From Flammeovirgaceae bacterium BBD 1991-12 (GTDB lineage: Bacteria; Bacteroidota; Bacteroidia; Cytophagales; Cyclobacteriaceae): DNA of 35,956 nucleotides. Of this stretch, positions 3,393 through 18,460 are shown one piece after another (the first letter of the stretch is position 1; each line of letters opens with the position of its first letter). The notes beneath the pieces were generated by a model that was given only the letters and a program-made list of their open reading frames with translations, ran no database searches and was not told where the DNA came from. The position numbers and the translations under genes were made by a program. The stretch covers positions 1-35,956 of the forward strand of contig LYSV01000061.1 of assembly GCA_001657315.1 (NCBI GenBank), read 5' to 3'.

Positions 3393-4892
3393 CTAGGTAT
3401 TTACATGTGAAGCATCAACTTCATCCTGAAGTATAAGCTTGGCATACTTATCCAGGTTGTGAGCATGTGTCGTTTTAACCTTGGGGACTTCATTACCCCT
3501 GAAATGATGAAATCGTAGAAGATTAGGATTAACCACCTCTAATCGTCCATCCCGGTACATTGGGCTAATCTCGTGAACCGTTGGATGCCATTGGGTTACG
3601 CGACTAGTACGAGCAATGATTTTACGATTAAAATTAACTAATCCATAATGGCTTACAATTGATTTCATCGCCACGGCTTTGTTACTTTCCCATCGATCTT
3701 CGAATACTTTCTGCAGGAGTTCAATGGCCGACGTATCCTGGTTAATATTTTCAAGACCGTGTAAATCCCCTACGATCAACTCATCAATATCGAAAAAGCC
3801 TATCCAGTCGACATATTCTCTTGCTATGGGCAATACTTGCATAGATACTGAGACCTGGTCAGCGGAAACCCCAGTTTCGGTTGGCGTAACTGGTATTAAT
3901 GAAATATGTACTTCATACTTATTTCTACAATGATCAAGTATTTGATGTAGTTTGTCTATTACCTCTTCATTGCTAAGGTCAACATTATAATTAGCTCCAG
4001 GCTTTTTTGTCCAGGTTTTCGTTTGATGATTACCAAATTGGGCATCATACACAAAATCACCATGATTACAAATCCAGAAATGGCTGATACCCAGGGAAGC
4101 ATGATGTTCAATCCATTCTTCTATGTGATCCAGTTCCATCCTGGGATAGATTAAAGTCATTAAACCTATCAACCTCTTTATGTTTTTTGTTAGATCACTT
4201 TTTACTATATTCTTATAGCCATAACTACACAATAGCCTATGAACAGAACCAGAACTTTCTATTAAATCAACTAGTTTTTTATTCAATCCCTTATTCTTTC
4301 GACGCACAACCCTGAGGGTTTTGATAACATTTCCACCATCTCCAAATCCCCATTTCCATTGATATCCATCGGGTTTTTGATAGCTATCAACCCCCGAGGT
4401 ATCCGTAGTACCTAAAAATCCAAAGATTTTTCCCGTGATTTTTAGAGGTGATTGTATTAAATCCTCGTACCTAGTCAAGTGAACATTTTCTGCATGGAGA
4501 TCAATATTTTCTAATATTGAAGCATAAGTTGCTACCCAATAATCCAATAACCGCTGTTCATCATACCAATGAATGTTAAGAAAATGATTTTCCAGGTTCA
4601 TTTTGTGTAAAGACAGGATAGTGTCGTATGGCTTTCTAATTAAAACTATGATCCTGGAACCCGGTTGAAACTGGAAATGGGGATATGTTAAGTTAGAATA
4701 ATTTCTTGGTCTTTTGATCAAGACCATATCTTCCCTGGTTAAGGACACCACCTCGTCTACTAATTGAACAGGAATTTCCGGGAGGTCTGTTATTTCTTCC
4801 TTTGTAGATAGCAATGATTTTAATAGGGTAGATCCTGCACGCATACTTGAAAGTAAATAAATATATTTCTTAGGGCTAGTTGTGATTGCCAT
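3393..4892 (-). CDS. Sulfotransferase-glycosyltransferase fusion protein
   Basis: 499-residue two-domain protein. Residues ~8-235 look like a PAPS-dependent sulfotransferase: a 5'-phosphosulfate loop at 15-28 (SSMRAGSTLLKSLL), a 3'-phosphate motif at 86-98 (RKPYDTILSLHKM), and RYEDLIQSP at 141-149, all typical of the family. Residues ~240-470 look like a GT92/GT2-type glycosyltransferase of the DUF23 kind: RMELDHIEEWIEHHASLGI (251-269), then an acidic metal-binding motif FFDIDEL (366-372). It is the last gene of the exporter operon and overlaps the LanC-like gene upstream by 17 bases, which suggests translational coupling. The natural inference is that it adds a sugar and a sulfate to the exported peptide or its glycan. 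A role in surface polysaccharide or lipid decoration cannot be excluded. Domain calls are firm; the acceptor is unknown. Confidence 0.8.
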   Translation of the reverse strand: MAITTSPKKYIYLLSSMRAGSTLLKSLLSTKEEITDLPEIPVQLVDEVVSLTREDMVLIKRPRNYSNLTYPHFQFQPGSRIIVLIRKPYDTILSLHKMNLENHFLNIHWYDEQRLLDYWVATYASILENIDLHAENVHLTRYEDLIQSPLKITGKIFGFLGTTDTSGVDSYQKPDGYQWKWGFGDGGNVIKTLRVVRRKNKGLNKKLVDLIESSGSVHRLLCSYGYKNIVKSDLTKNIKRLIGLMTLIYPRMELDHIEEWIEHHASLGISHFWICNHGDFVYDAQFGNHQTKTWTKKPGANYNVDLSNEEVIDKLHQILDHCRNKYEVHISLIPVTPTETGVSADQVSVSMQVLPIAREYVDWIGFFDIDELIVGDLHGLENINQDTSAIELLQKVFEDRWESNKAVAMKSIVSHYGLVNFNRKIIARTSRVTQWHPTVHEISPMYRDGRLEVVNPNLLRFHHFRGNEVPKVKTTHAHNLDKYAKLILQDEVDASHVNT

Positions 4893-5943
4893 AGGTCTTA
4901 AGGCTTTTAGGGCTTACTATTGATTTTGCAAGTATGAAACCAGGGATTCCATTTAACAATCCTAAATGGTGTATTAAACAAACTCTTTCTGCCTCAAAGT
5001 CATTTTTAGTATTTTTCATTGATTGAGACGCTTGTTCCAGCCAATACAACGCCTGTTTTCGCATGTTTAAGTCCTGGCTATTTTTAAAGATCATATGATA
5101 TAACAAAGCAATGCCGGATGCCCCATCAATGCCATACCTTTCATTTAGATCATTTTTAACTTCTTTTAAATCATACACATTAGGAGCGTCTATATCTAAG
5201 AGTAAGGGTATTCCGGTTTTAAAACAAAAATATTTCGAAACCAACCAAAGTAATAGTCGTGAAGAGGCTCTCATGGAACCTTTATTATTTGCCGCAGTTA
5301 CAAGCTTCCTCGCAATAGCTGTAGCATTTTTAATACATACTTTTCCTGTTATACATTCTGCCATCAAAAATATTAATACAGGCAAATCCCAGGAAAATGA
5401 AAATTCCTTAGGTTCATCAATATCAAAATTAAGTTGTCCAAGTAGCTGTTCGATATGTTTAATTGTCTTTTCAAGACAGTACTTGTTGGTTATTGTGAAA
5501 AAATGTTCATCATGAGCATTGTTGCACTTGATCCTACTTAAAAAATAAAAACCATACCCGGACATCCCACTCATTAGTCCCAGTTCACCCGGTTTTTTGT
5601 AGACCAGGGATAACATATACTTTTTATCAACATCAATCAATAAATCATCTGCATCCCCCTCTACAAACTTTTGTTGCAAAGCGTATTCTAGCCCCCACCC
5701 GATACCTCCTAAACCATCTGAAAAATCTAAAGTGAGATTTTTGGAGATATTCCTGAAAACATCATCAATCAGGCTATCACCCAGAATAGTCGCATTTGTA
5801 CATGAAATCAAAGACTCAAAATGATACATGGCCAAGCAGACACCCATTTTCCCATTCATTAGACCTACTGACTGCATCTTCGACAGCTCCTGTTTCAGGA
5901 CCCGGATGCACCAACCTAATAGTTCATCTTCGCCTTTTTCCAT
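4876..5943 (-). CDS. LanC-like protein 1 (lanthionine cyclase fold, zinc ligands not seen)
   Basis: 355 residues with the repeated GxxG turns of the LanC alpha/alpha toroid: LMNGKMG (28-34), DGLGGIGWG (76-84), GLMSGMSGYG (122-131), GIDGASG (271-277) and LLNGIPGF (329-336). True LanC cyclases bind zinc through one Cys and a later Cys-His pair (WCxG and CHG motifs). Neither motif can be found here: the expected CHG area reads IDGASG. No dehydratase (LanB or LanM) gene is present in the window to supply dehydroamino acids. I therefore call it LanC-like and do not predict lanthionine formation. It sits between a glycosyltransferase (37-base gap) and the sulfotransferase fusion (17-base overlap), so it may bind or position the precursor for those enzymes; that is inference. 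A paralogue lies at 15956-16999. Confidence 0.8.
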   Translation of the reverse strand: MEKGEDELLGWCIRVLKQELSKMQSVGLMNGKMGVCLAMYHFESLISCTNATILGDSLIDDVFRNISKNLTLDFSDGLGGIGWGLEYALQQKFVEGDADDLLIDVDKKYMLSLVYKKPGELGLMSGMSGYGFYFLSRIKCNNAHDEHFFTITNKYCLEKTIKHIEQLLGQLNFDIDEPKEFSFSWDLPVLIFLMAECITGKVCIKNATAIARKLVTAANNKGSMRASSRLLLWLVSKYFCFKTGIPLLLDIDAPNVYDLKEVKNDLNERYGIDGASGIALLYHMIFKNSQDLNMRKQALYWLEQASQSMKNTKNDFEAERVCLIHHLGLLNGIPGFILAKSIVSPKSLKTYGNHN

Positions 5944-5980
5944 GATGATTAGGCACTACTTTAAACACGCTGAAGAAAGG

Positions 5981-6760
5981 CTATTTCCAATTCCTTATTT
6001 CTCGTTTTATTTCATCACTTGACATCATGGCTAAGCGTGTAAGTTCTTCCTGTTTCATTGCTGCCTCTTGCCGGGAATGAAACCTGCTATTACTTCCCCT
6101 TTTATGAGTAAGGTGATACATATTGCCGTCCACTCTTTCCAATTTATATCCGAGATTATTCCACCTGTTAACACGTTCACCATCCTCTCTCCCCCAACCG
6201 TAAAAAAATTCGTTTTCCGCCCCAGATGCAAGATAGGTTTTTCGATGGGCAAAAAAGCCTCCGCCCACTGGGTCAGGGCCATACAGTTCATTCATTTTCA
6301 TTTCGTTCTCTTTAAGCATTTTAATACTCTGCGTCTTTAAGTAAAGCTCTTTTATTATTACAGTGGTGTCAAGAAATTTATCTTTATAAGGAAGGACAAA
6401 GTCTGCCTTTTTTGCCCTTATAAGATTCACGGCTTCCTCAATTTGGTGCTGAGCAACCAAGACATCGCTATCCCATACACCTACGATGGTAGAATTTGTA
6501 CTTCTCAATAACTGGTTGATATAATACGTACGATAAAAAACCGGGTCATAATCTTGTATGAAAGTGTATGTAACGTAGGCTGGCAACAGCTTAGATAACA
6601 ATTGATTATTGTAACCCGTAGCTTCGAGCACATGGATATTGGTATCGAAAAACCGGTTAATGAATTTGATCACCTCCAGTAGATTTTCCAACCGTCCGAT
6701 TGAATCAACCCTTAAAGGAATTAGGAAGGCAACATCCTGCAGGTTTGATTTTGTATTCAT
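5981..6760 (-). CDS. GT2-like glycosyltransferase with a galactosyltransferase-type C-terminal domain
   Basis: 259-residue GT-A fold glycosyltransferase. The N-terminal half starts with AFLIPLRVDSIGRLENL (11-27), typical of GT2 proteins, and has the metal-binding DSD motif in VWDSDVLV (95-102). The C-terminal half carries GGGFFAHR (166-173) and FFYGWGREDGE (185-195), the pattern of the Glyco_transf_7C (galactosyltransferase C-terminal) domain, in which GWGxED forms part of the acceptor/catalytic site. There is no signal peptide or membrane helix, so it should act in the cytoplasm. It lies 22 bases after the HlyD gene and 37 bases before LanC-like 1 in the same operon. By analogy with SunS in the sublancin cluster, it may glycosylate the precursor peptides; the donor sugar and acceptor residue cannot be read from the sequence. 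Confidence 0.8.
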   Translation of the reverse strand: MNTKSNLQDVAFLIPLRVDSIGRLENLLEVIKFINRFFDTNIHVLEATGYNNQLLSKLLPAYVTYTFIQDYDPVFYRTYYINQLLRSTNSTIVGVWDSDVLVAQHQIEEAVNLIRAKKADFVLPYKDKFLDTTVIIKELYLKTQSIKMLKENEMKMNELYGPDPVGGGFFAHRKTYLASGAENEFFYGWGREDGERVNRWNNLGYKLERVDGNMYHLTHKRGSNSRFHSRQEAAMKQEELTRLAMMSSDEIKREIRNWK

Positions 6761-6782
6761 GATAGAGGGCTTCTTTTATCAA

Positions 6783-8081
6783 TTAGTTATTGAAAAGGGC
6801 TCGAAGCGGGTTTATAAATTTGTAAACTAATCTGGTATTCTCGGTAATAATATCTGCGGTACCATCCATTTGCTGAATGAACTTTAATTTCTCTTTGTAT
6901 GAAGATTCCATGCCTTTCACCAATTCAATTTCAGCAATATACCCTTCTTCAGCTGGTACTAATGACACCGTCTTAACATGACCGTTGAGAACACCATATT
7001 CCATATATGGAAACCCTGAAAGTTTAATATTCACTTTTTGCCCTGCCTCAACTTTTCCCAGGTTTGAAGAAGATACAAATGCCCTGGCTATGATAATCGT
7101 CTCTTCCCTGGGGACAACCGTGGCAAGACGCTCACTTGCTTCGATCACTTGATTTTCACTCCAGTAATTGGTCATGGTGATTTTACCTTTTATAGGAGAA
7201 GTTAATACATGGCTTGCAAACCATTCATCCGTTTGTGTTTGAAGAGATGTAAACGCTTCGTCTAAAGTGTTCCGGAAAGTATTCAAATCATTTTCCCGTT
7301 TTAGCTTAAGTTCCAAAAGGCTTTCCTTTAATTGTAATAAAGTGTTTTCTGTATCCCTTATTGATGCTTCAAAGGATAATAACGAAGATTTCCGGGCAAG
7401 AAAGGCCTGCAAAGAACGTTCATAGTCCGTTTTAATGACACCATAACCTCCCATAAAATAAATCGCAGAATCCTGTAAATAAATGTCTTTGGCTAAATCA
7501 AATTCCTCCTTTTTCAATTCCCATTGCTTGAGCACTAAGTCATATTGTTCTTCATGGTTAAGTATCCTGCTTTCAAGCAAATTGATTTTCTTGTCGATCA
7601 GGTCTTGTCTCAAATAATAGCTAAGGTCACGATATGTTTTTTGAAAATTGAGGTATGTATTTTGTAATACACCCAAAGAGAGGTTATTTGGTAAATCAAT
7701 ACTTTTAACCTCTTTTTGCCAATTCCTTTCCAAGTCTACCAGTATATTATTCAATAATTCCAGGTGGTTATAGTTAGCAGCATTTTCAAGCAACGCAATG
7801 ACTGTGCCTGGTTCTACATCTTGCCCATCGGAGACATACCATTGATCGATCCTACCTCCTTTTTTAGAAATTACTGGAGCCGGGGGGTTAATTGTAGTTA
7901 AAATGAAAGGTGAAGAAACTACAACAGGATACTTGAAAAAGTAACTACCTACAGCTATGGAAAGAAATATAAAAAAGAAAAAAGTAATCCCCCAGCGAAC
8001 AATCCATGATGGTATATATCCCATGATCTCCTGTACTTCTTCGCTATGCGTTTCCAGTTTTATTTTTTGTCCAATTGCCAT
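6783..8081 (-). CDS. HlyD-family membrane fusion protein of the peptide exporter
   Basis: 432-residue periplasmic adaptor. A short cytoplasmic head is followed by one transmembrane helix (about 27-48) and a biotinyl/lipoyl-like half-domain (about 70-100: GGRIDQWYVSDGQDVEPG). A long coiled-coil hairpin spans about 105-285, then the second lipoyl half (around 290-310) and a beta-barrel region up to about 400. This is the standard layout of adaptors that partner type 1 or C39 ABC exporters. It starts 21 bases after the ABC transporter stop, so the two form the inner-membrane export unit. No TolC-like outer membrane protein is encoded in the window, so one elsewhere in the genome is presumably used. 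Confidence 0.9.
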   Translation of the reverse strand: MAIGQKIKLETHSEEVQEIMGYIPSWIVRWGITFFFFIFLSIAVGSYFFKYPVVVSSPFILTTINPPAPVISKKGGRIDQWYVSDGQDVEPGTVIALLENAANYNHLELLNNILVDLERNWQKEVKSIDLPNNLSLGVLQNTYLNFQKTYRDLSYYLRQDLIDKKINLLESRILNHEEQYDLVLKQWELKKEEFDLAKDIYLQDSAIYFMGGYGVIKTDYERSLQAFLARKSSLLSFEASIRDTENTLLQLKESLLELKLKRENDLNTFRNTLDEAFTSLQTQTDEWFASHVLTSPIKGKITMTNYWSENQVIEASERLATVVPREETIIIARAFVSSSNLGKVEAGQKVNIKLSGFPYMEYGVLNGHVKTVSLVPAEEGYIAEIELVKGMESSYKEKLKFIQQMDGTADIITENTRLVYKFINPLRALFNN

Positions 8082-8102: not shown

Positions 8103-10412
8103 TTAACATTGACCGGTTTGATTATTTTTTTCATTTATCTCATTCTTAAAACAAACAGACTTTAAGCCTACTTCTTCCGTTTTTGTTCTCTCCAATTCTA
8201 ACTGGTCTTTCACCAATTGATAGTATTTTCCCTTAGCAGCTACCAGGTCATTATGTGATCCTCTTTCTGCAATTTTACCTTGGTGTAATACTACTACCTG
8301 GTCAGCATTCTTAATCGTACTTAACCTATGTGCAATAACAAGTACAGTACGATTTTCAAAAAATGACTGTAGGTTTTGCATAATGACTCGTTCGTTTTTC
8401 GCATCCAGTGAATTGGTAGCCTCATCGAAAAAAAGGTAATCCGGATTTTTATATACAGCACGCGCGATCAAAACCCGCTGCTTTTGGCCACTACTTAAAC
8501 CATGCCCCTCACTACCTATCTTTGTATTTATCCCTAAGGGTAATGAATCGATGAATTCCTTGATATTTGCTATTTCAATGGCCATCCCTAATTTTTCCAT
8601 ATCTGGAACCTCATCTACAATTGCTATATTATTGGCGATACTATCGGAAAAGATATATCCTTCCTGCATTACCACGCCGCATTTACTTCTCCATGCGCTC
8701 GGGCTGTATTTGTTAAAAGGGATTCCATTGATCTCAATCTTACCGGTAACTAATTGATAAAATCCCAACAGCAGTTTAACAAGAGTAGTCTTTCCACTTC
8801 CACTCATACCAACAATTGCTGTAACTTTATTTGGCGGAATTTCCAAGTCTATGCCATCCAGTACCTTTTCAGAATGAGGGCCCTCGTATTGAAATGTCAA
8901 ATCTTTAATGGATAATACTTTATCTTTAGGAATATGTCTTATCTTGTTGTCTCCGTATCCCTCCTCATCTTCCTTGTCATGAATTTCTCCTAGTCTTTCC
9001 AGGCTTATTTTGGCATCCTGGGCAGACTGGGTAAACCCGATGAATTGTTGAATTGGTGCATTTAACTGGCCAATGATATATTGCATGGCCATCATCATTC
9101 CTAAAGTCATATTACCTTCTACTACGCCCCTGGCAGCTAAGTAAGAAATTGCTATGTTCTTTACCTGGTCAATTAGTGTTGAGCCTATTTGCTGATTTTG
9201 ATTTAACATCAAGCCTTTTACCCTTACCTTGAATAATTGTGCCTGTATTCGCTCCCATTCCCAGCGCTTCTGCTTTTCGCAATTATTAAGTTTGATTTCT
9301 TGCATTCCATTTACTAGCTGTACTAAGTTGCCTTGGTTAGCAGAGGACTGTTGAAATCGCTTGTAATCCAGCTCCCGCCTTCTCTTAAGAAATAATAAGA
9401 TCCAAAGGATATATAGAACACTACCTAAATAAAATATCCCTAATATACCAGTATGATAACTGGCCATTATGAATGTGTACATTACCAGCGTGAATATGGA
9501 AAACACAATATTGATCAGTGAGCCTGTTAAGAAGGACTGGATCCGTTTATGATCGCCAATACGCTGCATGATGTCCCCGACCTGTTTTACATCAAAAAAG
9601 GATATGGGAAGCTTCATGAGTTTTGCAAGAAAGCCAGCAATTAAAGAGATGCTCACTCTTGAGGTTACATGGAGCATTACCCAACTACGGATCAACCCAT
9701 TGGCAGCCTGACCGAAAGTGAGTACTACCTGCGCTACCAGTACCATTATTATGAATGTAAGGTCGCTATTCCCGATACCATAGTCTACAATAGACTGGGT
9801 TAGGAAAGGAAAAGCAAGACTAAGTAATGTACCCGTAAGTGTGGCTATCACCAATTGAATGAGAAACTTTGTGTAAGGTGTCAAATAGCCCAGTAAGTAT
9901 ATGAACCTAAGCCTACCTTTTCCTTCATCCTCTTCTTGATAAAACCTGGGGGTTGTTTCGAATAAAAGTGCTACCCCATTATAAGTATCCTGTTCTTTGT
10001 ACTTCAGCCAGGGTTTGAGGAATTCTTCCCGGGTATAGGAAATGAGGCCATGAGCGGGGTCAGAAACATGGATTACATCCTCTTTAATACTTTTACCAAA
10101 TGAAAAAAAGGAACTTCGCCTTTTTTGTATTTTGAAAACAACTACAAAGTGCTGTTTTTTCCAATGGACGATACAGGGCAATGGCACCTCGTCACGTAAT
10201 TGTTCCCAAGTAAGTTTGACTCCCTGTGTGTGAAATCCGATACTTTCCGCCGCTTCGCTTATACCCAGGAGAGAAACACCTAAGCGGGTAATATAGCATC
10301 GGTCACGTAAAAAAGCCAGGTTATAATTCTTACCAAAATGCTTAGCAATGATCCGTAGGCACGTAGGACCACAATCCATTTTATCCAATTGCTTGTAATG
10401 AGGGAATTTCAA
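8103..10412 (-). CDS. C39 peptidase-containing ABC transporter (PCAT) for double-glycine peptides
   Basis: 769-residue bacteriocin-type exporter. Residues 1-150 are a C39 cysteine protease: QLDKMDCGPTCL with catalytic Cys14, His88 in KKQHFVVVF and Asp118 in VSDPAHG. Six-helix transmembrane domain at about 165-460. Nucleotide-binding domain at about 495-740 with Walker A GMSGSGKT (535-542), signature LSSGQ (639-643), Walker B YLFFDE (659-664) and H-loop His695. All key residues are intact, so it should cleave leaders after the Gly-Gly pair while exporting the core. The GG-leader precursors at 11352-11573, 13645-13908 and 17451-17705 are the obvious substrates. It is the first gene of a five-gene minus-strand operon. 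A 20-bp motif shared with the precursor genes lies 107 bases upstream of its ATG. Confidence 0.95.
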   Translation of the reverse strand: MKFPHYKQLDKMDCGPTCLRIIAKHFGKNYNLAFLRDRCYITRLGVSLLGISEAAESIGFHTQGVKLTWEQLRDEVPLPCIVHWKKQHFVVVFKIQKRRSSFFSFGKSIKEDVIHVSDPAHGLISYTREEFLKPWLKYKEQDTYNGVALLFETTPRFYQEEDEGKGRLRFIYLLGYLTPYTKFLIQLVIATLTGTLLSLAFPFLTQSIVDYGIGNSDLTFIIMVLVAQVVLTFGQAANGLIRSWVMLHVTSRVSISLIAGFLAKLMKLPISFFDVKQVGDIMQRIGDHKRIQSFLTGSLINIVFSIFTLVMYTFIMASYHTGILGIFYLGSVLYILWILLFLKRRRELDYKRFQQSSANQGNLVQLVNGMQEIKLNNCEKQKRWEWERIQAQLFKVRVKGLMLNQNQQIGSTLIDQVKNIAISYLAARGVVEGNMTLGMMMAMQYIIGQLNAPIQQFIGFTQSAQDAKISLERLGEIHDKEDEEGYGDNKIRHIPKDKVLSIKDLTFQYEGPHSEKVLDGIDLEIPPNKVTAIVGMSGSGKTTLVKLLLGFYQLVTGKIEINGIPFNKYSPSAWRSKCGVVMQEGYIFSDSIANNIAIVDEVPDMEKLGMAIEIANIKEFIDSLPLGINTKIGSEGHGLSSGQKQRVLIARAVYKNPDYLFFDEATNSLDAKNERVIMQNLQSFFENRTVLVIAHRLSTIKNADQVVVLHQGKIAERGSHNDLVAAKGKYYQLVKDQLELERTKTEEVGLKSVCFKNEINEKNNQTGQC

Positions 10413-10905: not shown

Positions 10906-11310
10906 CTATTCAAATTCTTTAAGATATACTTGTTTTTGGAGAATCCTCATTCCGGTACTACTTTCGTGCCATCGCAAGCGCTTATACAAGACTTTAGATT
11001 TATCGATGATTTTTTCCAAAGCCCCAGGTAAAATGGCATAGGTCTTATTCCCGATAATAATTTCAAGATATACTGAATCTGCTCTATTAATAAATGACCG
11101 TGGTATTACATCTTTTCTACCTAAGGAGATAAAAGATTGATCTTTTTTATAGGTAAAAATCGGCATAACATAATCAAAAATACTCTCATAATGATTTCCC
11201 TTGAAATCATTATGAGAGTATAATCTCTTAAAATTAATACTATCCTCCTGCCCAAATGTCTGTAAAGAAATAAATAAGCAAAGTATGGTATACATCAGAA
11301 AAACTTTCAT
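10906..11310 (-). CDS. Exported protein of unknown function following precursor a
   Basis: 134 residues from the chosen ATG. An upstream in-frame ATG at 11340 would add ten residues, but the start at 11310 gives a clean signal peptide (MKVFLMYTILCLFISLQTFG, then QEDS), with a Lys directly before the hydrophobic core. The mature part is about 114 residues, mixed alpha/beta in character, with no cysteine and no motif I recognise. It begins 41 bases after the stop of precursor a on the same strand. The same arrangement, a precursor followed by a small exported protein, recurs at the other three precursor loci. It may be an immunity protein, a chaperone or a partner of the mature peptide; all of these are inference. 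Confidence 0.7.
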   Translation of the reverse strand: MKVFLMYTILCLFISLQTFGQEDSINFKRLYSHNDFKGNHYESIFDYVMPIFTYKKDQSFISLGRKDVIPRSFINRADSVYLEIIIGNKTYAILPGALEKIIDKSKVLYKRLRWHESSTGMRILQKQVYLKEFE

Positions 11311-11351
11311 AATCAGCTTAATTAAATCACAGGAATACATTTCTGTTTATC

Positions 11352-11573
11352 TCAAGCCCAGCAACCGTCCTGAACACCCTGAATCGTACATGGCGAGCCA
11401 TCATCAGGTACTCCATCAGTGCAATAACTGCACAAGGCCCAATGAGTTTGTCCATCAACGCAACTGGACAGCCAACATGAAGTATCTCCCCCACTTCCTC
11501 CTCTAAAATCGAGCAACTCTTCCCTGTTTAATAATTTTTCAGGCATTAGTTTAAGTTTTTTTAAGCTTTTCAT
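11352..11573 (-). CDS. Double-glycine leader precursor peptide a (6 core cysteines)
   Basis: 73 residues. The leader MKSLKKLKLMPEKLLNREEL continues LDFRGG, with the Gly-Gly pair at 25-26 (a second GG at 28-29), the cleavage site expected for the C39 exporter at 8103-10412. The leader is clearly related to those of precursors b and c (KLKL, then EKLL or KVL, then ELL/DLL/ELI before the GG). The core of about 47 residues has six cysteines (33, 38, 48, 51, 62, 71) and three tryptophans. An even cysteine number and the VKOR-thioredoxin gene nearby suggest disulfides. Ser and Thr residues near the cysteines are possible glycosylation sites. The leader resembles the Bacteroidota natural-product precursor group with GG sites. 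The shared regulatory motif lies 104 bases upstream. Confidence 0.88.
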   Translation of the reverse strand: MKSLKKLKLMPEKLLNREELLDFRGGSGGDTSCWLSSCVDGQTHWALCSYCTDGVPDDGSPCTIQGVQDGCWA

Positions 11574-11633: not shown

Positions 11634-11783
11634 TTAATGCATGCGTTTTGGTACATCACTTTTAAAGGTAAAAATCGCCAGTATATTATTTTTACACTCA
11701 TAAGTTCCCGGGGTTCCTGTAGTTTTTCTCCGGACCAAGTCATCCATTTTTCCAAGCCTTTTCATGTATTTAATGATATCCAT
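11634..11783 (-). pseudogene. Truncated copy of the small HTH regulator gene
   Basis: A 49-codon frame starting MDIIKYMKRLGKMDDLVRRK, then TTGTPG. These 26 residues match the start of the 101-residue HTH protein at 13971-14276 at 19 positions. After TGTPG the reading frame leaves the homology and runs straight through the regulatory motif that, in the intact copy, lies at the end of the gene. The helix-turn-helix itself is therefore lost, consistent with an internal deletion joining codon 26 to the tail and the promoter of the following precursor gene. It sits directly upstream of precursor a, just as the intact gene precedes precursor b. The product, if made, should not bind DNA in the same way. 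Confidence 0.7.
11678..11697 (-). promoter_or_regulatory. Shared A/T-rich regulatory motif upstream of precursor a
   Basis: On the minus strand it reads GTGTAAAAATAATATACTGG, 104 bases before the precursor a ATG. It agrees with the sites at 10520, 13958 and 17334 over most positions. It lies inside the 3' part of the truncated HTH frame. Confidence 0.55.
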
Positions 11784-11966: not shown

Positions 11967-12692
11967 CTACCTGAACTCACCTATTCCTAAACATTCATCA
12001 ATATCTATTTTGACAAATTTAGACTCAAAAAATTTCACCCCATCTTTAGATTTTGTAATAGAAAAGGGAATTAAAAAATTGTTTACTTTTTTGTAATCAC
12101 TTGCTTGAGTAATTATACCATTATCTTGTTTAATATAATTAAGCAGGTAAGAGGCTTGATCAAAATATAAGAAAACAAAAGATTTACCAGGTAGCTTAAC
12201 CCTAATTTCATGAAAGTAACACTCGTCAATCTTTTTCTCACCCACCAACTTAATTGATTTACCTTCATTGATATACCGCTCTGCAAGAATCGGATAAAAT
12301 TCAAATTTAACCGGCTTGAGATTTAACGTAGTGTAATGGTTTGCAAAATTCAACGATGTTGAGTCTTCAATGGAATAAAATGTCGCTATTAGCGTCTCAT
12401 CTTTATACACTTCAGTTTTGTGATAGCCTGGCCAACATCTATATATTCTATGGATAGAATGATTACTTTGGCCGGGTAATGGTATTACATAATTACGTGG
12501 GCTATTCTCATAGTAAGATTCAATTTCCAGGTAAGCCGCTTTTACAGCCCTGATAGAATCGATATGAACAGTACTAAAATAGTTGTTAACAATCTTTTCC
12601 ACCTCTTGGCAAAGAATGTCATTAAAAGGAAAGCATAATATAACCGATACTAAGATACCTATGTTCGATTTTATATTATGCTTAACCTTCAT
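11967..12692 (-). CDS. Exported LolA-like (outer-membrane lipoprotein-sorting-like) protein
   Basis: 241 residues from the ATG at 12692. A longer in-frame start at 12755 would overlap the Cys-rich ORF at 12707-12871 and place a non-signal sequence in front, so I reject it. Signal peptide at about 1-29 (hydrophobic GILVSVILCFPF, then DILCQ). The C-terminal half has the pattern of LolA/LppX-like half-barrels: VGEKKIDECYFHEIRVKLPG, then FLYFDQASYLLNYI and DYKKVNNFLIPFSI. Such folds bind lipids or hydrophobic ligands in the periplasm. It starts 14 bases after the stop of the Cys-rich small ORF, so the two are almost certainly cotranscribed. A role in carrying or neutralising the partner peptide would fit but is inference. 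Confidence 0.65.
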   Translation of the reverse strand: MKVKHNIKSNIGILVSVILCFPFNDILCQEVEKIVNNYFSTVHIDSIRAVKAAYLEIESYYENSPRNYVIPLPGQSNHSIHRIYRCWPGYHKTEVYKDETLIATFYSIEDSTSLNFANHYTTLNLKPVKFEFYPILAERYINEGKSIKLVGEKKIDECYFHEIRVKLPGKSFVFLYFDQASYLLNYIKQDNGIITQASDYKKVNNFLIPFSITKSKDGVKFFESKFVKIDIDECLGIGEFR

Positions 12693-12706
12693 GAAAACAA
12701 AATTCA

Positions 12707-12871
12707 TCAGCAACCAAACTGGCTGCAACCATAACCATCCATGCATTGATTGCATTGGCTAATGACACATTCTACATAGCAAACACTATCACCGCCACAG
12801 GAAATTTCACAAGCGATTTCTGCGGAATCACAACATGTGCAACGACTACATCTGTTAACAAGCTTCAGCAT
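12707..12871 (-). CDS. Cys-rich small ORF, candidate fourth precursor peptide (d)
   Basis: 54 codons from ATG to TGA, with 12 cysteines (8, 11, 13, 14, 21, 25, 31, 35, 40, 43, 49, 54). A Gly-Gly pair at 26-27 (EISCGGDSV) lies at the same distance from the start as in precursors a, b and c. If cut there, the core of 27 residues would contain six cysteines. The N-terminal part (MLKLVNRCSRCTCC) lacks most of the conserved leader pattern and contains six cysteines of its own, so this may be a divergent or partly decayed precursor. An in-frame TGA two codons upstream excludes a longer reading frame. It lies 14 bases before an exported protein gene, the arrangement seen at the other precursor loci. 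No copy of the shared motif was found directly upstream. Confidence 0.5.
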   Translation of the reverse strand: MLKLVNRCSRCTCCDSAEIACEISCGGDSVCYVECVISQCNQCMDGYGCSQFGC

Positions 12872-13159: not shown

Positions 13160-13486
13160 TCATTCTTTTTTTGTTATAATTATCAATGATTTAATTCTAT
13201 CACCTATAATCTTTTGTATTGTGTCTGGATTTTCAATTATTCTAATACTTCTGTCATCTGCCTCAACTTTGTTTCTAAATTCATGTGGGTTAACCATATT
13301 ATAGAGGCTGTCCCCGTCAATAATCAGGACTTCCAAAGAAGGCGACCCCACCAGAATATCTTTAAAATGTTGATATTCTACATTATGATATACGCTGATG
13401 GAACTATCTGGTTTTATTGTATCATGCTGGGCATATACCGTAAAAAAGAGAGGCATCATAAACAGAAGCAATATATTCTTTTTCAT
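13160..13486 (-). CDS. Small exported protein following precursor b (TonB-plug-like fragment)
   Basis: 108 residues. Signal peptide MKKNILLLFMMPLFFTVYA with cleavage near residue 19-20. The mature 88 residues contain SLEVLIIDGDSLYNM (about 50-64) and end GDRIKSLIIITKKE. This echoes two landmarks of TonB-dependent receptor plug domains in Bacteroidota: the PLIVIDG strand and the terminal GVIIITTK strand. It has no barrel, so it cannot be a receptor by itself; the resemblance may mean a mini-domain that mimics or binds a plug. It begins 158 bases after the stop of precursor b on the same strand. Function unknown. A decoy that protects the producer's receptors from the peptide would be a testable idea. 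Confidence 0.6.
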   Translation of the reverse strand: MKKNILLLFMMPLFFTVYAQHDTIKPDSSISVYHNVEYQHFKDILVGSPSLEVLIIDGDSLYNMVNPHEFRNKVEADDRSIRIIENPDTIQKIIGDRIKSLIIITKKE

Positions 13487-13644: not shown

Positions 13645-13908
13645 TCATGTCCAAATGCCACTTCCACATATTGGGGGATTAAGGATAGCATTTGTTCCAG
13701 AGGCAGGAACAAATAGAGTATTGCAACTATTATCTGTATATAGTGTACCATAATAATGACAACCCGTATCGTGACCATAGCCATAATATCCTGTTTGTAT
13801 GTTCAGGCAAACACTGCCACTACCAACGCTGCCACCTCTATAATCTAGTAGGTCTGTCTCTTTCAATAGTTTTTCAGGCTTTAATTTTAGTCTACCAAGT
13901 TTTTTCAT
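13645..13908 (-). CDS. Double-glycine leader precursor peptide b (4 core cysteines)
   Basis: 87 residues. The leader MKKLGRLKLKPEKLLKETDL is followed by LDYRGG with Gly-Gly at 25-26, matching the leader of precursor a at most positions. The core of 61 residues is rich in Gly, Tyr, Ser, Thr and Asn and has four cysteines (34, 50, 62, 81). The even number suggests two disulfides, and the many Ser/Thr are possible sugar acceptors. It follows the HTH regulator gene by 62 bases, after LanC-like 2 and the VKOR-thioredoxin gene in the same direction. The shared regulatory motif is 49 bases upstream of the ATG and overlaps the end of the HTH gene, so the precursor can be transcribed both from its own promoter and by read-through. 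Confidence 0.85.
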   Translation of the reverse strand: MKKLGRLKLKPEKLLKETDLLDYRGGSVGSGSVCLNIQTGYYGYGHDTGCHYYGTLYTDNSCNTLFVPASGTNAILNPPICGSGIWT

Positions 13909-13957
13909 TTTACTGTTTTTTGAGATTATCTAATACCGTATCTAACTTAAAAACCGC

Positions 13958-13977
13958 TGGTATACTATTTTTATGCT
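13958..13977 (-). promoter_or_regulatory. Shared A/T-rich regulatory motif upstream of precursor b
   Basis: On the minus strand it reads AGCATAAAAATAGTATACCA, overlapping the last codons of the HTH regulator gene. The following bases (GCGGTTTTTAAG) also resemble the sequence after the precursor a site (CGATTTTTACC), so the similarity is longer than the 20-bp core. It is 49 bases from the precursor b ATG. Confidence 0.55.
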
Positions 13978-14276
13978 AAAAGAACTTTACATATTTTTTC
14001 AAGACTTTTTTTATTGATTTGCACCAATTCTTCTTCGTCTAATTTTTTCATTTCATAACCTACCTTCAACCTGCACGGGAATAAATAACAGTAACTTTTC
14101 CGATCATAATTATACTCCAATGGAGCATTCATTTCCTTGAGCATCTGGATATATTTTAGTAAGGAGATACGAGATAGCCCCATTTTATTCGCAAACTCCC
14201 CAGGGGTACCTGTTGCTTTCCTACGTATCAGGTCATCCATTTTTTTGATCCTATCCAAATACTTGATAATATTCAT
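13971..14276 (-). CDS. Small winged-helix regulator of the peptide island
   Basis: 101 residues. Residues ~1-65 form a winged helix-turn-helix of the HTH_11 kind: helix TPGEFANKMG (24-33), recognition helix around SRISLLKYIQMLKEM (35-49), and a wing with two strands around LEYNYDRKSYCYLF (53-66). The C-terminal third is a charged helix (KKLDEEELVQINKKSLEKI). It starts 11 bases after the VKOR-thioredoxin stop and precedes precursor b. A truncated paralogue precedes precursor a. The obvious candidate target is the 20-bp A/T-rich motif found at four island promoters, including the one inside the end of this gene, which would allow autoregulation. Whether it activates or represses cannot be told. 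Confidence 0.75.
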   Translation of the reverse strand: MNIIKYLDRIKKMDDLIRRKATGTPGEFANKMGLSRISLLKYIQMLKEMNAPLEYNYDRKSYCYLFPCRLKVGYEMKKLDEEELVQINKKSLEKICKVLLA

Positions 14277-14287
14277 AGCAGTAGTAT

Positions 14288-15874: not shown

Positions 15875-15955
15875 TCGAATGTAGTTTTAAAGAGGGTGAA
15901 GAATGTGAGTTGTTTTACTATGGTTTGAAAATCAAACTATTTTAATGCTTGATAA

Positions 15956-16999
15956 TTACGGATCTGCAAGGCCAAGCATTGAATACCCTACTCCGGCAAT
16001 ACCTTCATATAAACCCAATCTCTTTGGATGGAACTTTCCTTCCGATGAAATATCTTGCCACAAGCTAGATTGTAAAATTCGGTGGCCAGCTTTACAGGAG
16101 ATCATCTTGCTTTTTTTATTGGTTTTACCTGCCTGCTTTAAATACAAAATAATACCACCCAACCCATTGGAAACCCATATGCTTTTACCTGGAAATTCTG
16201 ATAATAATTGCCTCTCATTAATGTGGTTTTGCAACAGGACGGCGTGTTGCTCCCATTGAGCGCAATCCATTTCCTTAGCAATCATCATCATTACTATCGA
16301 CAAATAGAGCCTATTGCTTGTATTGAGAGGAAAAATGGAAAAGGCTATTTTTGAAAGCCTTTCAAGTGTTATATCTATTTTACGATCATAAAACCTCAAT
16401 TTTCTGAATTCGACCAAAAGCACAAACAACAAGGGAAGCGGCCAATCAATCCTAAATCCTACAGGTTCCTTAAAAAGGTCGTTTTTACGCTCCATTGTAT
16501 TGTAGATTTGGTTGATATGATCTATAGCTAACCGCTTAAGCATAAAATCTCGATTTGTCATATTTTCAAATTCTTTATCTTGCAGTCGAGAAAGGAGATA
16601 AAACCCATAGCCAAGGAGACCTTCGTGCAAATCTATAGGCAGTTCCTTGCGGTCTGCCAGGAATTTGAAGACCTTATCATCAAGTTCATAAATGATGTCA
16701 TCAGTTTCCGCCTCTATAAAACGATTTTTTACTAAGTATTTAATACCCCAGGCAATCCCCGCAAGTCCACTCTCAAAGTCCAGTGGCAGGACATTATCTT
16801 CGGCCTTCTCCCATATCGTATCTATTAGCAATTCGGCATGGTCCCTATACAAGATCTTTCCTGTTTTTTTATATAAGTGAAAGAGATAAATGCTGATCCC
16901 CATTTTTCCATGTAGAAGTCCAGGGTTATCCATACAAGGGCTTTGTTCTAGTATGACGTCAGTAATTACCGATTGTACTAGCTTAAAGTCCAAACTCAT
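15956..16999 (-). CDS. LanC-like protein 2 (zinc ligands not seen)
   Basis: 347 residues, paralogue of the protein at 4876-5943. GxxG turns: LLHGKMG (28-34), ESGLAGIAWG (76-85), HEGLLGYGFYLLSRL (125-139), SNGLGGI (277-283) and YEGIAGVGY (331-339). The third is nearly the same as in LanC-like 1 (SGYGFYFLSRI). The WCxG and CHG motifs that hold the zinc in active LanC cyclases are absent. It is the first gene of the second minus-strand operon, followed by the VKOR-thioredoxin fusion, the HTH regulator and precursor b. Two different LanC-like proteins in one island may serve different precursors or form a complex with the glycosyltransferases; I cannot decide. A weak copy of the regulatory motif lies about 220 bases upstream. 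Confidence 0.8.
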   Translation of the reverse strand: MSLDFKLVQSVITDVILEQSPCMDNPGLLHGKMGISIYLFHLYKKTGKILYRDHAELLIDTIWEKAEDNVLPLDFESGLAGIAWGIKYLVKNRFIEAETDDIIYELDDKVFKFLADRKELPIDLHEGLLGYGFYLLSRLQDKEFENMTNRDFMLKRLAIDHINQIYNTMERKNDLFKEPVGFRIDWPLPLLFVLLVEFRKLRFYDRKIDITLERLSKIAFSIFPLNTSNRLYLSIVMMMIAKEMDCAQWEQHAVLLQNHINERQLLSEFPGKSIWVSNGLGGIILYLKQAGKTNKKSKMISCKAGHRILQSSLWQDISSEGKFHPKRLGLYEGIAGVGYSMLGLADP

Positions 17000-17060
17000 T
17001 CAATTTTAATGTAATGAAAAAATATCCACCTAAGGTTTATAAGTATAAGGAGTTATACAG

Positions 17061-17098
17061 ACAAGCTGCCTGGTACTTCCCTGCTAAGAGTAGCTTGT
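17061..17098. repeat. Inverted repeat in the LanC-like 2 upstream leader
   Basis: Arms ACAAGCTGC and GTAGCTTGT pair over nine positions (one G-T) around a 20-base loop. Part of the sequence (AAGCTGCC, TGTATACGGGCTT) recurs in shortened form at 18485-18510, on the other side of the precursor c/metalloprotease pair. Confidence 0.35.
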
Positions 17099-17333
17099 AT
17101 ACGGGCTTACTTCATATCCATTTTAGAATGGAAAACTAAGATAAAGAAATCAAAATGCCCGGGGGTATTTTGATCATAACCAAGGGATAAATTAGTTTTT
17201 TAAAAAAAATATTTTTTTAATACCAATTGACTATCAATGTGTTATCCTGTATTTTCTTATATTAATTTTAAGTCATAAAGATTGCCCATTCGAACCAGGA
17301 AAGGAACCCAATAAATTAACACGATGTCAAACC

Positions 17334-17353
17334 GGTATAATAATAATATACCA
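17334..17353 (+). promoter_or_regulatory. Shared A/T-rich regulatory motif upstream of precursor c
   Basis: Reads GGTATAATAATAATATACCA on the plus strand. It is a perfect inverted repeat of GGTATA and TATACC around seven A/T bases, the best palindrome of the set. The proximal end is 97 bases from the precursor c ATG. The motif keeps the same orientation relative to its gene although the gene is on the opposite strand from the others, which supports a real regulatory role. Confidence 0.6.
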
Positions 17354-17450
17354 GTAGTACTTAATTTGGTCATAATTTATCAAAGATATTCAATGGGGTA
17401 ATGGGCTTGTTGACCATACTTGAATTTAATTTAAACTACATTATAGTAAA

Positions 17451-17705
17451 ATGACAAAAACACTAAGTAAACTAAAGCTTTCGCAAGCCAAAGTATTGAA
17501 AAAAGAGGAACTTATTAATTTCCAAGGCGGATCATCCAATTCTCCATGCCCTACCGATGAATGTATGGAGTGTTTAGGAACATGCTGGGGTGATGTTGCC
17601 ACTGACTGCGATGATCTTTATGACCCCTTAGACCAGTCAGCACGTGATGCCTGTGTTGAATCTGGTGAGAATTGGTGTGTTGACTTTTGTAGTTCTGGAT
17701 TGTAG
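17451..17705 (+). CDS. Double-glycine leader precursor peptide c (8 core cysteines)
   Basis: 84 residues. The leader MTKTLSKLKLSQAKVLKKEE continues LINFQGG with Gly-Gly at 26-27. It shares the SKLKL/KKLKL, VL/LL and EEL-I/L-NF/DF pattern with precursors a and b, so the same exporter should process it. The core of 57 residues is acidic (many Asp/Glu) and has eight cysteines (33, 38, 41, 45, 53, 68, 76, 80), possibly four disulfides. It is the only precursor on the plus strand and is followed after 125 bases by an exported archaemetzincin-like protease, on the same strand. Its composition differs from a and b, so the island probably makes a set of unlike peptides through one export and modification machinery. 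Confidence 0.85.
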   Translation: MTKTLSKLKLSQAKVLKKEELINFQGGSSNSPCPTDECMECLGTCWGDVATDCDDLYDPLDQSARDACVESGENWCVDFCSSGL

Positions 17706-17830
17706 TAGTATACCCGCTAAGGCTATGTAGAAGCAGCATTTTCAAAGTATTTCTTTTAATTCAAGGACTGAACGAAGTTATTAAGAGCCTCTTAGTATGT
17801 ATTCTCATGTTTCACCGAAAACAGGCTTAG

Positions 17831-18460
17831 ATGAACCTGGGTAAGGGTATTGTCTTACTTATTTTTTTCTGCTACCCTGTAACAAAGGCACCTCCACAGC
17901 TGTCACGTATCCAAGTGACTGTCATAAGCCTTCATGGTGTGAGTATGAAAGAGAAGATTATCGTAAAAGAAGGCCTGGAAAGCTATTACCCAGGAGAGGT
18001 AATCTTCAAGGAATTACCATTAACGAACGGAACCGTGCAGAGTATGTTAAACGAAGAAGTGATCTATGCCAAGCCACTATTGGATACGTTAAAAAAACAT
18101 TCCTTACCTTCAACATGGTCAAAAACGATTCTATTGACCGATAAGAAGCTTACAGTGTCAAAACTTCCTTTTGAATACAGCATGAAATATTTAGTAAGGG
18201 GATTTGCTGAGTCAGTGCCAGGGAACCTAGCCATTATATCCACCTATAAACTAAAACATGAACAGTCAGAAAACGCCCCATATCATAAGCTTTTAATTAA
18301 AACTGCAAGACATGAAATGGGTCATTTGATTGGCCTTCATCATTGTAATGAAACAGGTTGCCTGATGAATACCGGGGGATTTAATAATAACGTACAATTC
18401 CTTGATCTTGATTACAAGATAGGTGCAAAATGTCAAAATCTGCTGGATAGCATATATTAA
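17831..18460 (+). CDS. Exported archaemetzincin-like metalloprotease (peptidase M54 type)
   Basis: 209 residues. The N-terminus has a short hydrophobic segment (GIVLLIFFCYPV) after a Lys and is probably a signal peptide or anchor. Residues 161-179 read HEMGHLIGLHHCNETGCLM, an exact match to the archaelysin signature HExxHxxGxxHCxxxxCxM: zinc ligands His161, His165 and His171, catalytic Glu162, and structural-site Cys172 and Cys177. Known archaemetzincins complete the second zinc site with a CxxC near the C-terminus. Here only Cys201 (GAKCQNLL) remains, so that site may be altered. The gene follows precursor c on the same strand and takes the place that other exported proteins have after precursors a, b and d. 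It could mature or degrade peptide c, or act with it on prey; all of these are inference. Confidence 0.85.
   Translation: MNLGKGIVLLIFFCYPVTKAPPQLSRIQVTVISLHGVSMKEKIIVKEGLESYYPGEVIFKELPLTNGTVQSMLNEEVIYAKPLLDTLKKHSLPSTWSKTILLTDKKLTVSKLPFEYSMKYLVRGFAESVPGNLAIISTYKLKHEQSENAPYHKLLIKTARHEMGHLIGLHHCNETGCLMNTGGFNNNVQFLDLDYKIGAKCQNLLDSIY

What the first reader, a model, noticed from the sequence alone, without database searches (positions are those of the whole stretch)
3393..18460. Glycocin-like peptide island with added LanC-like proteins and a sulfotransferase
The gene set (GG-leader Cys-rich precursors, C39 ABC exporter with HlyD adaptor, cytoplasmic glycosyltransferase, thiol oxidoreductase) matches the logic of the sublancin glycocin cluster. 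It differs by carrying two LanC-like proteins, a sulfotransferase-glycosyltransferase fusion and a VKOR-thioredoxin fusion, and by having several unrelated cores served by one machinery. There is no LanB, LanM, radical SAM or YcaO gene. The product class would be disulfide-rich glycosylated, perhaps sulfated, peptides from Bacteroidota. I know of no described system with this combination, but I could not search for one.
Basis: partly seen in the sequence, partly recalled or inferred. Interest (0 to 1): 0.85.

Follow-up and report, generated by a model that had tools for sequence, protein, structure and literature searches.

The report
Sugar-decorated peptide factory without lanthionine enzymes
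A Bacteroidota genome carries a gene island that appears to make small, secreted, cysteine-rich peptides that are cross-linked by disulfides and decorated with sugars, using a relative of the lanthionine-forming enzyme that has lost its active site and seems to have been re-used as a helper for sugar- and sulfate-adding enzymes.

Summary
The island is real: C39 peptidase-exporter, HlyD, glycosyltransferase (GT), two LanC-like proteins, sulfotransferase-GT fusion, VKOR-thioredoxin fusion, three intact GG-leader Cys-rich precursors and one that lost its leader. It fails membership tests for glycocins and lanthipeptides. The GT matches no NCBIfam family; its fold is nearest chondroitin polymerase and polypeptide GalNAc-transferases. 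The LanC-like proteins keep the LanC fold, but 0 of 55 aligned (the two here included) keep the zinc cysteines. Of 79 loci chosen by the GT alone, 55 have a LanC-like gene within 300 bp on the same strand. LanC-like domains also occur fused to sulfotransferases and glycosyltransferases, so I read them as docking modules for glycan tailoring, not cyclases. Precursors of GT-bearing loci without radical SAM mostly start with Ser after GG (36/55); those of GT-lacking sister clusters with Tyr (17/25; Ser 1/25). This nominates Ser1 as sugar site, though clade history could explain it. Precursors are paired with secreted partners and inherited with them (28/45; shuffled mean 0.74). Zinc-less LanC beside GTs was reported in Bacteroidales in 2023 and set aside; I found fusions, residue swap and pairing in no paper searched. 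All chemistry is inferred.

The parts
3393..4892 (-). Sulfotransferase-glycosyltransferase fusion (499 aa); accessory tailoring enzyme
   Evidence: Pfam; only strong hit among 196 family genomes is the window's own
4876..5943 (-). LanC-like protein 1, no zinc ligands; its end overlaps the start of the ST-GT gene by 17 bases
   Evidence: Pfam; zinc columns; tree pairs it with Fulvivirga L073, where it also lies beside the GT
5981..6760 (-). GT-A glycosyltransferase (Glyco_transf_7C), DxD and GWGxED motifs present; proposed peptide glycosyltransferase
   Evidence: Pfam; alignments; AF2 model pLDDT 94.3; Foldseek
6783..8081 (-). HlyD-type membrane fusion protein
   Evidence: Pfam
8103..10412 (-). 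C39 peptidase-containing ABC exporter (PCAT), catalytic Cys/His/Asp present
   Evidence: Pfam; catalytic columns
10906..11340 (-). Secreted partner of precursor 1 (144 aa, no Pfam family at the cut-off)
   Evidence: N-terminal hydrophobic segment and position right behind precursor 1
11352..11573 (-). Precursor 1, GG leader, Cys-rich core starting with Ser
11634..11783 (-). Truncated duplicate of the small regulator-like gene (remnant)
   Evidence: ORF, compared by eye with 13971-14276
11967..12755 (-). Secreted partner of precursor 2 (262 aa)
   Evidence: homologue follows the homologous precursor in L055 (26% over 218 aa, E 2e-12)
12707..12871 (-). Precursor 2 core without a leader (decayed)
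   Evidence: L055:10115-10372 is an intact relative, 54% over 48 aa
13160..13486 (-). Secreted partner of precursor 3 (108 aa, no Pfam family)
13645..13908 (-). Precursor 3, GG leader, core starting with Ser
13971..14276 (-). Small protein (101 aa), helix-turn-helix-like by eye, possible local regulator
   Evidence: no Pfam or NCBIfam match at E<=0.01; homologue beside VKOR in L052, L054, L055 and L057
14288..15874 (-). Dead C39-like domain + VKOR + thioredoxin: proposed leader-recruited disulfide-forming enzyme
   Evidence: Pfam; of 28 homologues (this one included) 28 lack the C39 Cys, 27 have a CxxC in the VKOR part, 28 in the Trx part
15956..16999 (-). LanC-like protein 2, LanC fold, no zinc ligands
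   Evidence: AF2 model pLDDT 93.6; Foldseek
17451..17705 (+). Precursor 4, GG leader, core starting with Ser
   Evidence: 41% over 86 aa to L055:2729-2977
17831..18460 (+). Secreted M54-type metallopeptidase, partner of precursor 4
   Evidence: Pfam; M54 homologue follows the precursor-4 homologue in L055

Best explanation
The island makes secreted, disulfide-rich, glycosylated peptides. (1) Precursors with GG leaders are made in the cytoplasm. (2) The GT-A glycosyltransferase puts the first sugar on the core; the most likely acceptor is the Ser right after the GG in clusters of this type. (3) The LanC-like proteins keep the LanC barrel but have lost the zinc site; they do not form lanthionines but hold or present the peptide to the sugar- and sulfate-adding enzymes. 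(4) Here the ST-GT fusion extends and sulfates the glycan. (5) The VKOR-thioredoxin protein, tethered to the leader by its dead C39 domain, drives disulfide formation, and the PCAT/HlyD pair cuts behind GG and exports. (6) Each precursor comes with its own secreted partner, inherited with it like toxin and immunity protein. Shown by sequence: the parts, the loss of the zinc site, the linkage and fusions, the residue difference, the co-inheritance. Inferred: every chemical step and all biological roles. My odds per step: export 0.95, disulfides 0.85, peptide glycosylation 0.75, LanC-like not a cyclase 0.8, LanC-like as docking module 0.5, Ser1 as acceptor 0.4, sulfation here 0.45, partner as immunity protein 0.45.
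For: Linkage: 79 loci found with the GT alone; 67 have a LanC-like gene, 55 within 300 bp on the same strand. In 196 family genomes the 11 with a strong GT hit (E<1e-30) all also have a LanC2 hit. Zinc: 0 of 55 LanC-like rows have Cys in either zinc-Cys column, 49 have Trp/Tyr for the catalytic His; of 7 ordinary LanCs from the same family 5 have the full triad. Fold: LanC2 model matches MadC, LanCL1, GCR2, NisC (E 3e-7 to 6e-6); glycoside hydrolases come from E 0.048 on. Fusions: Sulfotransfer_4-LanC (L059, same place as L085; LANC_like 32.9 bits); GT11-LanC (L128:7067-8704) and DUF3405-DUF707-LanC (L097:2-2167), both below Pfam's LANC_like cut-off but 95 and 55 bits by my LanC profile; GT2-partial LanC-GT7C-Sulfotransfer_2 (L128:8726-11425) and partial LanC-GT7C (L137:9389-10750), 44 and 31 bits, not seen by Pfam. 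Donor hint: UDP-galactopyranose mutase next to the GT in L052. Site: Ser+1 36/55 in GT+ loci without rSAM, 1/25 in GT- sister clusters; Tyr+1 3/55 and 17/25; of 15 GT+ cores listed with a GT- homologue, 11 are Ser against another residue, 8 of these against Tyr. DUF6734 sits directly behind HlyD in L182, L185, L189, L192. Pairing: 28 of 45, permutation mean 0.74, max 6 in 2000.
Against: No chemistry is shown. Ser+1 is not universal: 3/13 in GT+ loci with radical SAM, and 19/55 other GT+ precursors have another residue; leaders also differ between the two sets (IYGG, KITGG), so the difference could follow protease or leader evolution, and rows are not independent. DUF6734 has no match in three of the nine GT- genomes (those of L184, L191, L193), two of which still have Tyr starts. 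Missing zinc ligands do not prove a dead cyclase: class III LanKC cyclases are zinc-less and active (recalled), and LanKC is the best NCBIfam part-match here. A LanB-type gene on contig C100 could act in trans. 12 of 79 GT loci show no LanC-like gene; some contigs are short, but L101, L105 and L135 are full 20-kb loci. In L063 the GT-LanC pair stands beside peptides with signal-peptide-like, non-GG leaders, so the LanC domain cannot simply read the GG leader. 17 of 45 core mates do not share the best partner mate.
Confidence: 0.5

Rival explanations
1. The LanC-like proteins are active zinc-less cyclases of a lanthipeptide-like pathway, with dehydration done by an unrecognised enzyme or by the LanB on contig C100.
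For: LanC fold; best NCBIfam part-match is class III LanKC, whose cyclase is zinc-less (recalled); a LanB-type gene exists elsewhere in the genome.
Against: No dehydratase, kinase or lyase match in the island ORFs scanned; none among the seven neighbour-family representatives scanned, of twelve families seen in 4 or more of the 79 loci (the other five were not scanned); catalytic His column is Trp/Tyr in 49 of 55; half-length copies and fusions to sugar and sulfate transferases; a disulfide-type VKOR-Trx in 29 of 79 loci.
Confidence: 0.12
2. The GT and LanC-like genes decorate cell-surface glycans and merely neighbour a peptide export cluster.
For: LanC-like proteins in Bacteroidales were judged endoglucanase-like and near CAZymes (PMC10352776); the GT model is nearest a polysaccharide polymerase; 36 of 79 GT loci show no PCAT, some because the contig ends.
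Against: LanC-like and GT follow PCAT-HlyD directly in Algoriphagus, Cyclobacterium and Pleomorphovibrio loci; the fold search puts LanC far ahead of glycoside hydrolases; the first core residue tracks presence of the GT.
Confidence: 0.15
3. Ser versus Tyr at position +1 reflects exporter-protease preference or clade history, not a modification site; the sugar sits elsewhere, for example on Cys as in sublancin.
For: Leaders differ with the residue; Ser+1 is rare in rSAM-type GT loci (3/13).
Against: Homologous cores carry Ser in GT+ and Tyr in GT- loci (8 of the 15 best pairs listed).
Confidence: 0.45
4. The paired secreted proteins are receptors, carriers or processing factors (signalling or nutrient capture) rather than immunity proteins.
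For: Several are 6-bladed propeller proteins (PF17170) or DUF4221 lipoprotein-like proteins, and one is a metallopeptidase (M54); no killing activity is known.
Against: One-to-one co-inheritance with the core (28 of 45) is what toxin-immunity pairs show; it would also fit ligand and receptor.
Confidence: 0.45

Closest known systems
Glycocins (sublancin, glycocin F)
   Same: GG leader, C39 exporter, cytoplasmic GT, thiol oxidoreductase, Cys-rich core
   Different: GT has no NCBIfam match and folds like chondroitin polymerase / polypeptide GalNAc-transferases; LanC-like companion; VKOR-Trx instead of the glycocin thiol-disulfide proteins (recalled); diverse cores with secreted partners
Bacteroidales GG-peptide radical SAM systems (TIGR04149 precursors, TIGR04148 rSAM, TIGR04150 pseudo-rSAM, TIGR04157 GT)
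   Same: related leaders (weak TIGR04149 matches); the same GT-LanC pair occurs in loci with these rSAM families
   Different: no rSAM here but VKOR-Trx: VKOR in 29, rSAM or pseudo-rSAM in 14, both in 1, neither in 37 of 79 loci
Bacteroidales BGC3-5 of PMC10352776 (passages and section 3.2 read)
   Same: LanC-like proteins without the zinc motif, glycosyltransferase in BGC3, precursors followed by putative signalling proteins in BGC5
   Different: there with rSAM, and judged endoglucanase-like; sulfotransferase and VKOR occur nowhere in the main text; fusions and precursor-partner inheritance not in the parts I read
Unclassified LanC clusters of PMC7268733 (passages and one section read)
   Same: LanC-like proteins near ABC transporters and proteases without lanthipeptide dehydratases, suggested as an uncharacterised RiPP class
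   Different: not analysed further in the parts I read
Class I LanC / class III LanKC / LanCL
   Same: fold
   Different: zinc triad and catalytic His lost; no dehydratase in the island

Membership tests
Glycocin | SunS-family peptide glycosyltransferase | tested here: not met
   no NCBIfam match at E<=1 for the GT (existence of a SunS model there is recalled); SunS not among the 10 PDB sequence hits nor the 50 listed Foldseek hits
Glycocin | GG-leader precursor with C39 exporter | tested here: met
Glycocin | sugar attached to the peptide | not testable with these tools
   needs mass spectrometry
Lanthipeptide | dehydratase (LanB, LanM, kinase/lyase) with the cyclase | tested here: not met
   none among the island ORFs scanned; a LanB-type gene is on another contig
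Lanthipeptide | LanC zinc triad | tested here: not met
   0 of 55 rows, the window's two included; controls 5 of 7
LanC fold superfamily | alpha/alpha toroid of LanC type | tested here: met
   Foldseek E 3e-7 to MadC, 6e-6 to NisC for the LanC2 model; LanC1 not modelled
GG-Bacteroidales rSAM RiPP (TIGR04149) | precursor above model cut-off | tested here: not met
   11.5, 14.0 and 15.5 bits against 25
GG-Bacteroidales rSAM RiPP (TIGR04149) | radical SAM maturase in the cluster | tested here: not met
   no Pfam match among the island ORFs scanned
Toxin-immunity pair | partner inherited with the peptide | tested here: met
   28 of 45 best core mates are best partner mates; permutation max 6 in 2000
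Toxin-immunity pair | peptide kills and partner protects | not testable with these tools
   needs bench work

The most novel reading that the evidence does not exclude
Zinc-less LanC-like domains are a docking module for peptide-glycan tailoring across Bacteroidota: they have given up lanthionine chemistry and, alone or fused to glycosyl- and sulfotransferases, bring the peptide to these enzymes. Together with the GT7C-type enzyme they define a class of sulfatable, N-terminally O-glycosylated, disulfide-knotted peptides, gut species included, each encoded as a precursor-partner cassette on shared machinery.
Probability: 0.33. Interest if true: 0.88.

Novelty: new variant of a known kind. Interest (0 to 1): 0.72.

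Why it matters
It would explain a noticed puzzle, LanC-like genes without dehydratases in Bacteroidota (PMC7268733, PMC10352776), by a change of role from cyclase to docking module. It turns a vague 'orphan LanC' annotation into testable claims: which enzyme adds the sugar, at which residue, and which secreted protein belongs to which peptide. Adjacent GT-LanC pairs are also found in Bacteroides fragilis, Parabacteroides distasonis, Paraprevotella clara and Segatella copri genomes, so an unstudied group of glycopeptides may be made in the gut.

Tried and rejected
Viral contigs: the GT query found nothing. PDB sequence search with LanC2 gave no hit. The 'endoglucanase-like' reading was tested by fold search of LanC2 and rejected. 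The idea that the LanC domain reads the GG leader was dropped as a general rule because in L063 the GT-LanC pair stands beside peptides with signal-peptide-like leaders; my notes also name L061, L062 and L065, but L061 shows no such peptide in the listing, the contig of L062 holds a GG precursor too (L087:807-1064), and L065 has no GT hit and a broken LanC. I first took these peptides for NVEALA peptides; Pfam gave no match. Sulfation as a core feature was rejected. Exclusion between DUF6734 and the GT at genome level (14 and 11 of 196 genomes, no overlap) means little, as only 0.8 shared genomes would be expected.

Rows dropped: seven loci that repeat genomes already held, plus L114 (same strain as L117), were left out of the precursor counts. 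In the GT- set L187, L188 and L190 were left out (L190 is from a GT-bearing genome; L187 has one Ser+1 precursor with a broken VKOR and no GT; L188 gave none), and two precursors whose GG could not be placed (one each in L184 and L193); one counted Tyr row (L184) is a 15-residue core without Cys. The signal-peptide test is a simple hydrophobicity rule (threshold 1.9, 1.6), not SignalP; the window's precursor 3 counted as having no downstream gene, although its partner ORF is there, presumably because an overlapping ORF hid it. PADLOC gave nothing for five island proteins.

Paper searches: ten used. The statement that fusions, residue difference and pairing are not in print rests on these, on an open-access library only, and on reading parts of three papers. 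[quoted passage not shown]

Full report
What is there. The window is a whole contig (C44) of an 8.6 Mb genome in 282 contigs. Precursors 1, 3 and 4 have clear GG leaders; precursor 2 is a core without a leader, whose intact relative is in L055. Four secreted-type proteins lie directly behind the four precursors (10906-11340, 11967-12755, 13160-13486, 17831-18460). The rest of the window looks like a carbohydrate-use locus (GH2-type enzyme, SusC/SusD-type pairs, hybrid sensor; read from the ORFs by eye, not scanned) with an AbiL-like pair at one end.

Relatives. In 196 genomes of the same family the GT has a strong hit (E<1e-30) in 11 (18 at E<=0.001), and all 11 also have a hit to LanC2. Regions fetched around them show the same core in several: PCAT, HlyD, GT, LanC-like, VKOR-Trx, the small 101-aa protein and GG precursors. 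A scan of one genome per species for the GT matched 118 stretches, of which 97 encode relatives; the best 80 were kept, 79 distinct loci. By record title they are Bacteroidota, with Balneolota (L074, L091), one unnamed bacterium (L138) and one archaeal MAG contig (L109) that is probably mis-binned. 67 of 79 hold a LanC-like gene; in 55 it lies within 300 bp of a GT on the same strand, in 62 within 3 kb. Of 46 full-length neighbours 25 overlap the GT reading frame (frames taken from the first start codon). Many loci end at contig ends, so absences are weak.

The LanC-like proteins. I aligned 55 of them (46 within 300 bp of a GT and 320-400 aa long, the two of the window, seven more from fetched clusters) with seven ordinary LanCs from the same family. 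None of the 55 has Cys in either zinc-Cys column; the loop that carries the first Cys is missing; the catalytic His column is Trp or Tyr in 49 and His in one. Of the seven controls all keep the catalytic His and the second Cys, and five the full triad. In a maximum-likelihood tree the seven ordinary LanCs lie on one side of a branch with 100/100 support. The predicted structure of LanC2 (mean pLDDT 93.6) is a LanC barrel: best matches MadC, LanCL1, GCR2, NisC, then LanM and LanKC enzymes; glycoside hydrolases begin at E 0.048. So this is a LanC fold without its known active site. The 2023 Bacteroidales survey saw the same loss of the zinc motif and thought the proteins more similar to endoglucanases; the fold comparison speaks against that, for LanC2 at least.

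Fusions. Some long ORFs in these loci join a LanC-like domain to other enzymes. Surest: a sulfotransferase (PF17784, E 5e-23) with LANC_like above cut-off in Cyclobacterium (L059, same place as L085). Next: a GT11 domain with a LanC-like domain in Parabacteroides faecis (L128:7067-8704) and DUF3405-DUF707 with one in Paraprevotella clara (L097), where Pfam sees LANC_like below its cut-off (16.3 and 21.8 bits against 23.2) and my LanC profile gives 95 and 55 bits. Weakest: partial LanC-like stretches in a GT2-GT7C-sulfotransferase (PF03567) protein of 899 aa (L128:8726-11425) and in a GT7C protein of Parabacteroides massiliensis (L137), 44 and 31 bits by my profile, nothing by Pfam. Free-standing LanC-like ORFs of about 200 aa also occur; the one I looked at against the profile, L128:11454-12071, keeps the N-terminal 140 residues and lacks most of the part that holds the zinc site in LanC. 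Domains that are fused to different transferases and have lost their active site are best read as docking or presenting modules. This is inference.

The glycosyltransferase. Asp99, Gly188, Trp189 and Asp193 are invariant and Asp97 and Glu192 nearly so in 31 aligned GTs. The model (pLDDT 94.3) is closest to chondroitin polymerase and to polypeptide GalNAc-transferases; by sequence the best solved relative is beta-1,4-galactosyltransferase 7, weakly (E 0.009). In L052 a UDP-galactopyranose mutase gene and another GT follow it, and one sister cluster (L186) also has such a mutase, so the sugar may be a galactose. Other loci add an FkbM-type methyltransferase (L061) or a family whose representatives match DUF707/DUF3405 (15 of 79 loci).

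Oxidation. The VKOR-Trx protein has at its N-terminus a C39-like domain that lacks the catalytic Cys in 28 of 28 homologues of full length; 20 of 33 exporters were used as controls and all 20 keep Cys, His and Asp; a CxxC is found in the VKOR part of 27 and in the thioredoxin part of 28. A dead C39 domain is an obvious way to hold a GG leader near the oxidase (inference). VKOR occurs in 29 of 79 GT loci, rSAM or pseudo-rSAM (representatives match TIGR04148 and TIGR04150) in 14, both in one (L111), neither in 37: they look like alternatives.

A natural experiment on the acceptor. A TIGR04149 search in 148 genomes led to sister clusters in nine genomes that have no GT and no LanC2 hit: L182-L186, L189, L191-L193. 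They share VKOR, PCAT, HlyD, precursors and partner proteins in most cases, but directly behind HlyD lies a DUF6734 protein in L182, L185, L189 and L192; in the genome of L186 one follows a UDP-galactopyranose mutase, in that of L183 one lies just outside the fetched stretch, and the genomes of L184, L191 and L193 have none. Their cores start with Tyr in 17 of 25 and with Ser in 1 of 25. In GT+ loci without rSAM 36 of 55 start with Ser and 3 with Tyr; in GT+ loci with rSAM or pseudo-rSAM 3 of 13 start with Ser. Of the 15 GT+ cores listed with a homologous GT- core, 11 have Ser against another residue, 8 of them against Tyr; the other four start with Tyr, Gly, Ala and Met. The best pair (L190 of Cyclobacterium, L186) scores 178. 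Rows share ancestry, leaders change too, and Fisher's p (1e-7) takes no account of that. I read this as a lead that Ser1 is the sugar site, at about 0.4.

Paired partners. Of 68 precursor candidates in GT loci, 53 have a gene within 400 bp behind them, and 41 of these 53 carry a hydrophobic N-terminus, against 193 of 592 next-genes in the same loci. With the twelve fetched loci L182-L193 added there are 96 precursors: 16 without a downstream gene, 11 whose neighbour lacks the signal, 69 pairs. Of 45 precursors with a homologous core in another locus, 28 have their best core mate and best partner mate in the same cassette; shuffling gives 0.74 on average and never more than 6 in 2000. Among 49 core-homologous pairs 71% have partners alike at 150 bits or more, among 2247 other pairs 1.8%. 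So peptide and partner tend to travel together, across both kinds of cluster. The partners are of many kinds: 6-bladed propellers (PF17170), DUF4221, M54 metallopeptidase, a GH2-like protein (L052), a PNGase F-II N-domain protein (L130), several without any family. The pattern is that of toxin and immunity protein or ligand and receptor; the sequence cannot tell which.

What is known. The Walker 2020 survey had 3052 unclassified LanC-like proteins; after setting aside likely unrelated ones and contig ends, 1392 remained, and a number of these lie in clusters that the authors thought might make an uncharacterised RiPP class (section read). The 2023 Bacteroidales survey described zinc-less LanC with rSAM, and in one cluster a GT, and set the LanCs aside. 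I found no paper in the searched library that links the LanC-like domain to the GT by fusion, points to the residue after GG, or shows the precursor-partner inheritance (searches listed in Tried and rejected). Novelty is therefore a new variant of a known kind (glycosylated, GG-leader RiPPs), with a possibly new role for the LanC fold.

Noticed in passing
window 34031-35919: Two-gene unit matching AbiL abortive-infection proteins (AbiLi E 2e-90, AbiLii E 2e-20).
   Followed up: no
window 12707-12871 and 11634-11783: Decay inside the island: a precursor core without leader and a truncated duplicate of the small regulator-like gene.
   Followed up: partly
L005:10661-12132 and 13799-14125 (contig C49 of the same genome): A second zinc-less LanC-like gene directly before a long GG-leader peptide with no Cys in its core, followed by a cut-off PCAT gene.
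   Followed up: partly
L007:5568-7553 and L150 (contig C100 of the same genome): A separate LanB-type gene (962-aa frame) some 4-5 kb from a 661-aa LanC-like protein (PF05147 E 5e-49); a different lanthipeptide-like cluster whose LanC also shows degenerate zinc motifs by eye.
   Followed up: no
L057:8427-9251: An insertion with a transposase-like ORF (by eye) splits the HlyD gene of this cluster.
   Followed up: no
L109: A contig binned as Methanomethylovorans (archaeon) carries a Bacteroidota-type GT-LanC cluster; probably mis-binned.
   Followed up: no
L063:4303-9769: GT-LanC pair beside two Cys-containing peptides with hydrophobic, signal-peptide-like leaders, the first followed by a TolB-like propeller protein, no PCAT seen in the 18-kb stretch: the same enzymes may serve a second export route.
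   Followed up: partly
L182, L185, L189, L192: DUF6734 proteins with an extra C-terminal part hold the place of LanC-GT behind HlyD; DUF6734 may be a peptide-modifying enzyme acting on Tyr1.
   Followed up: partly
L130:9847-14909: Bacteroides timonensis: four similar GG precursors, each followed by its own secreted-type protein of 272-293 aa; the one tested has a PNGase F-II N-domain.
   Followed up: no
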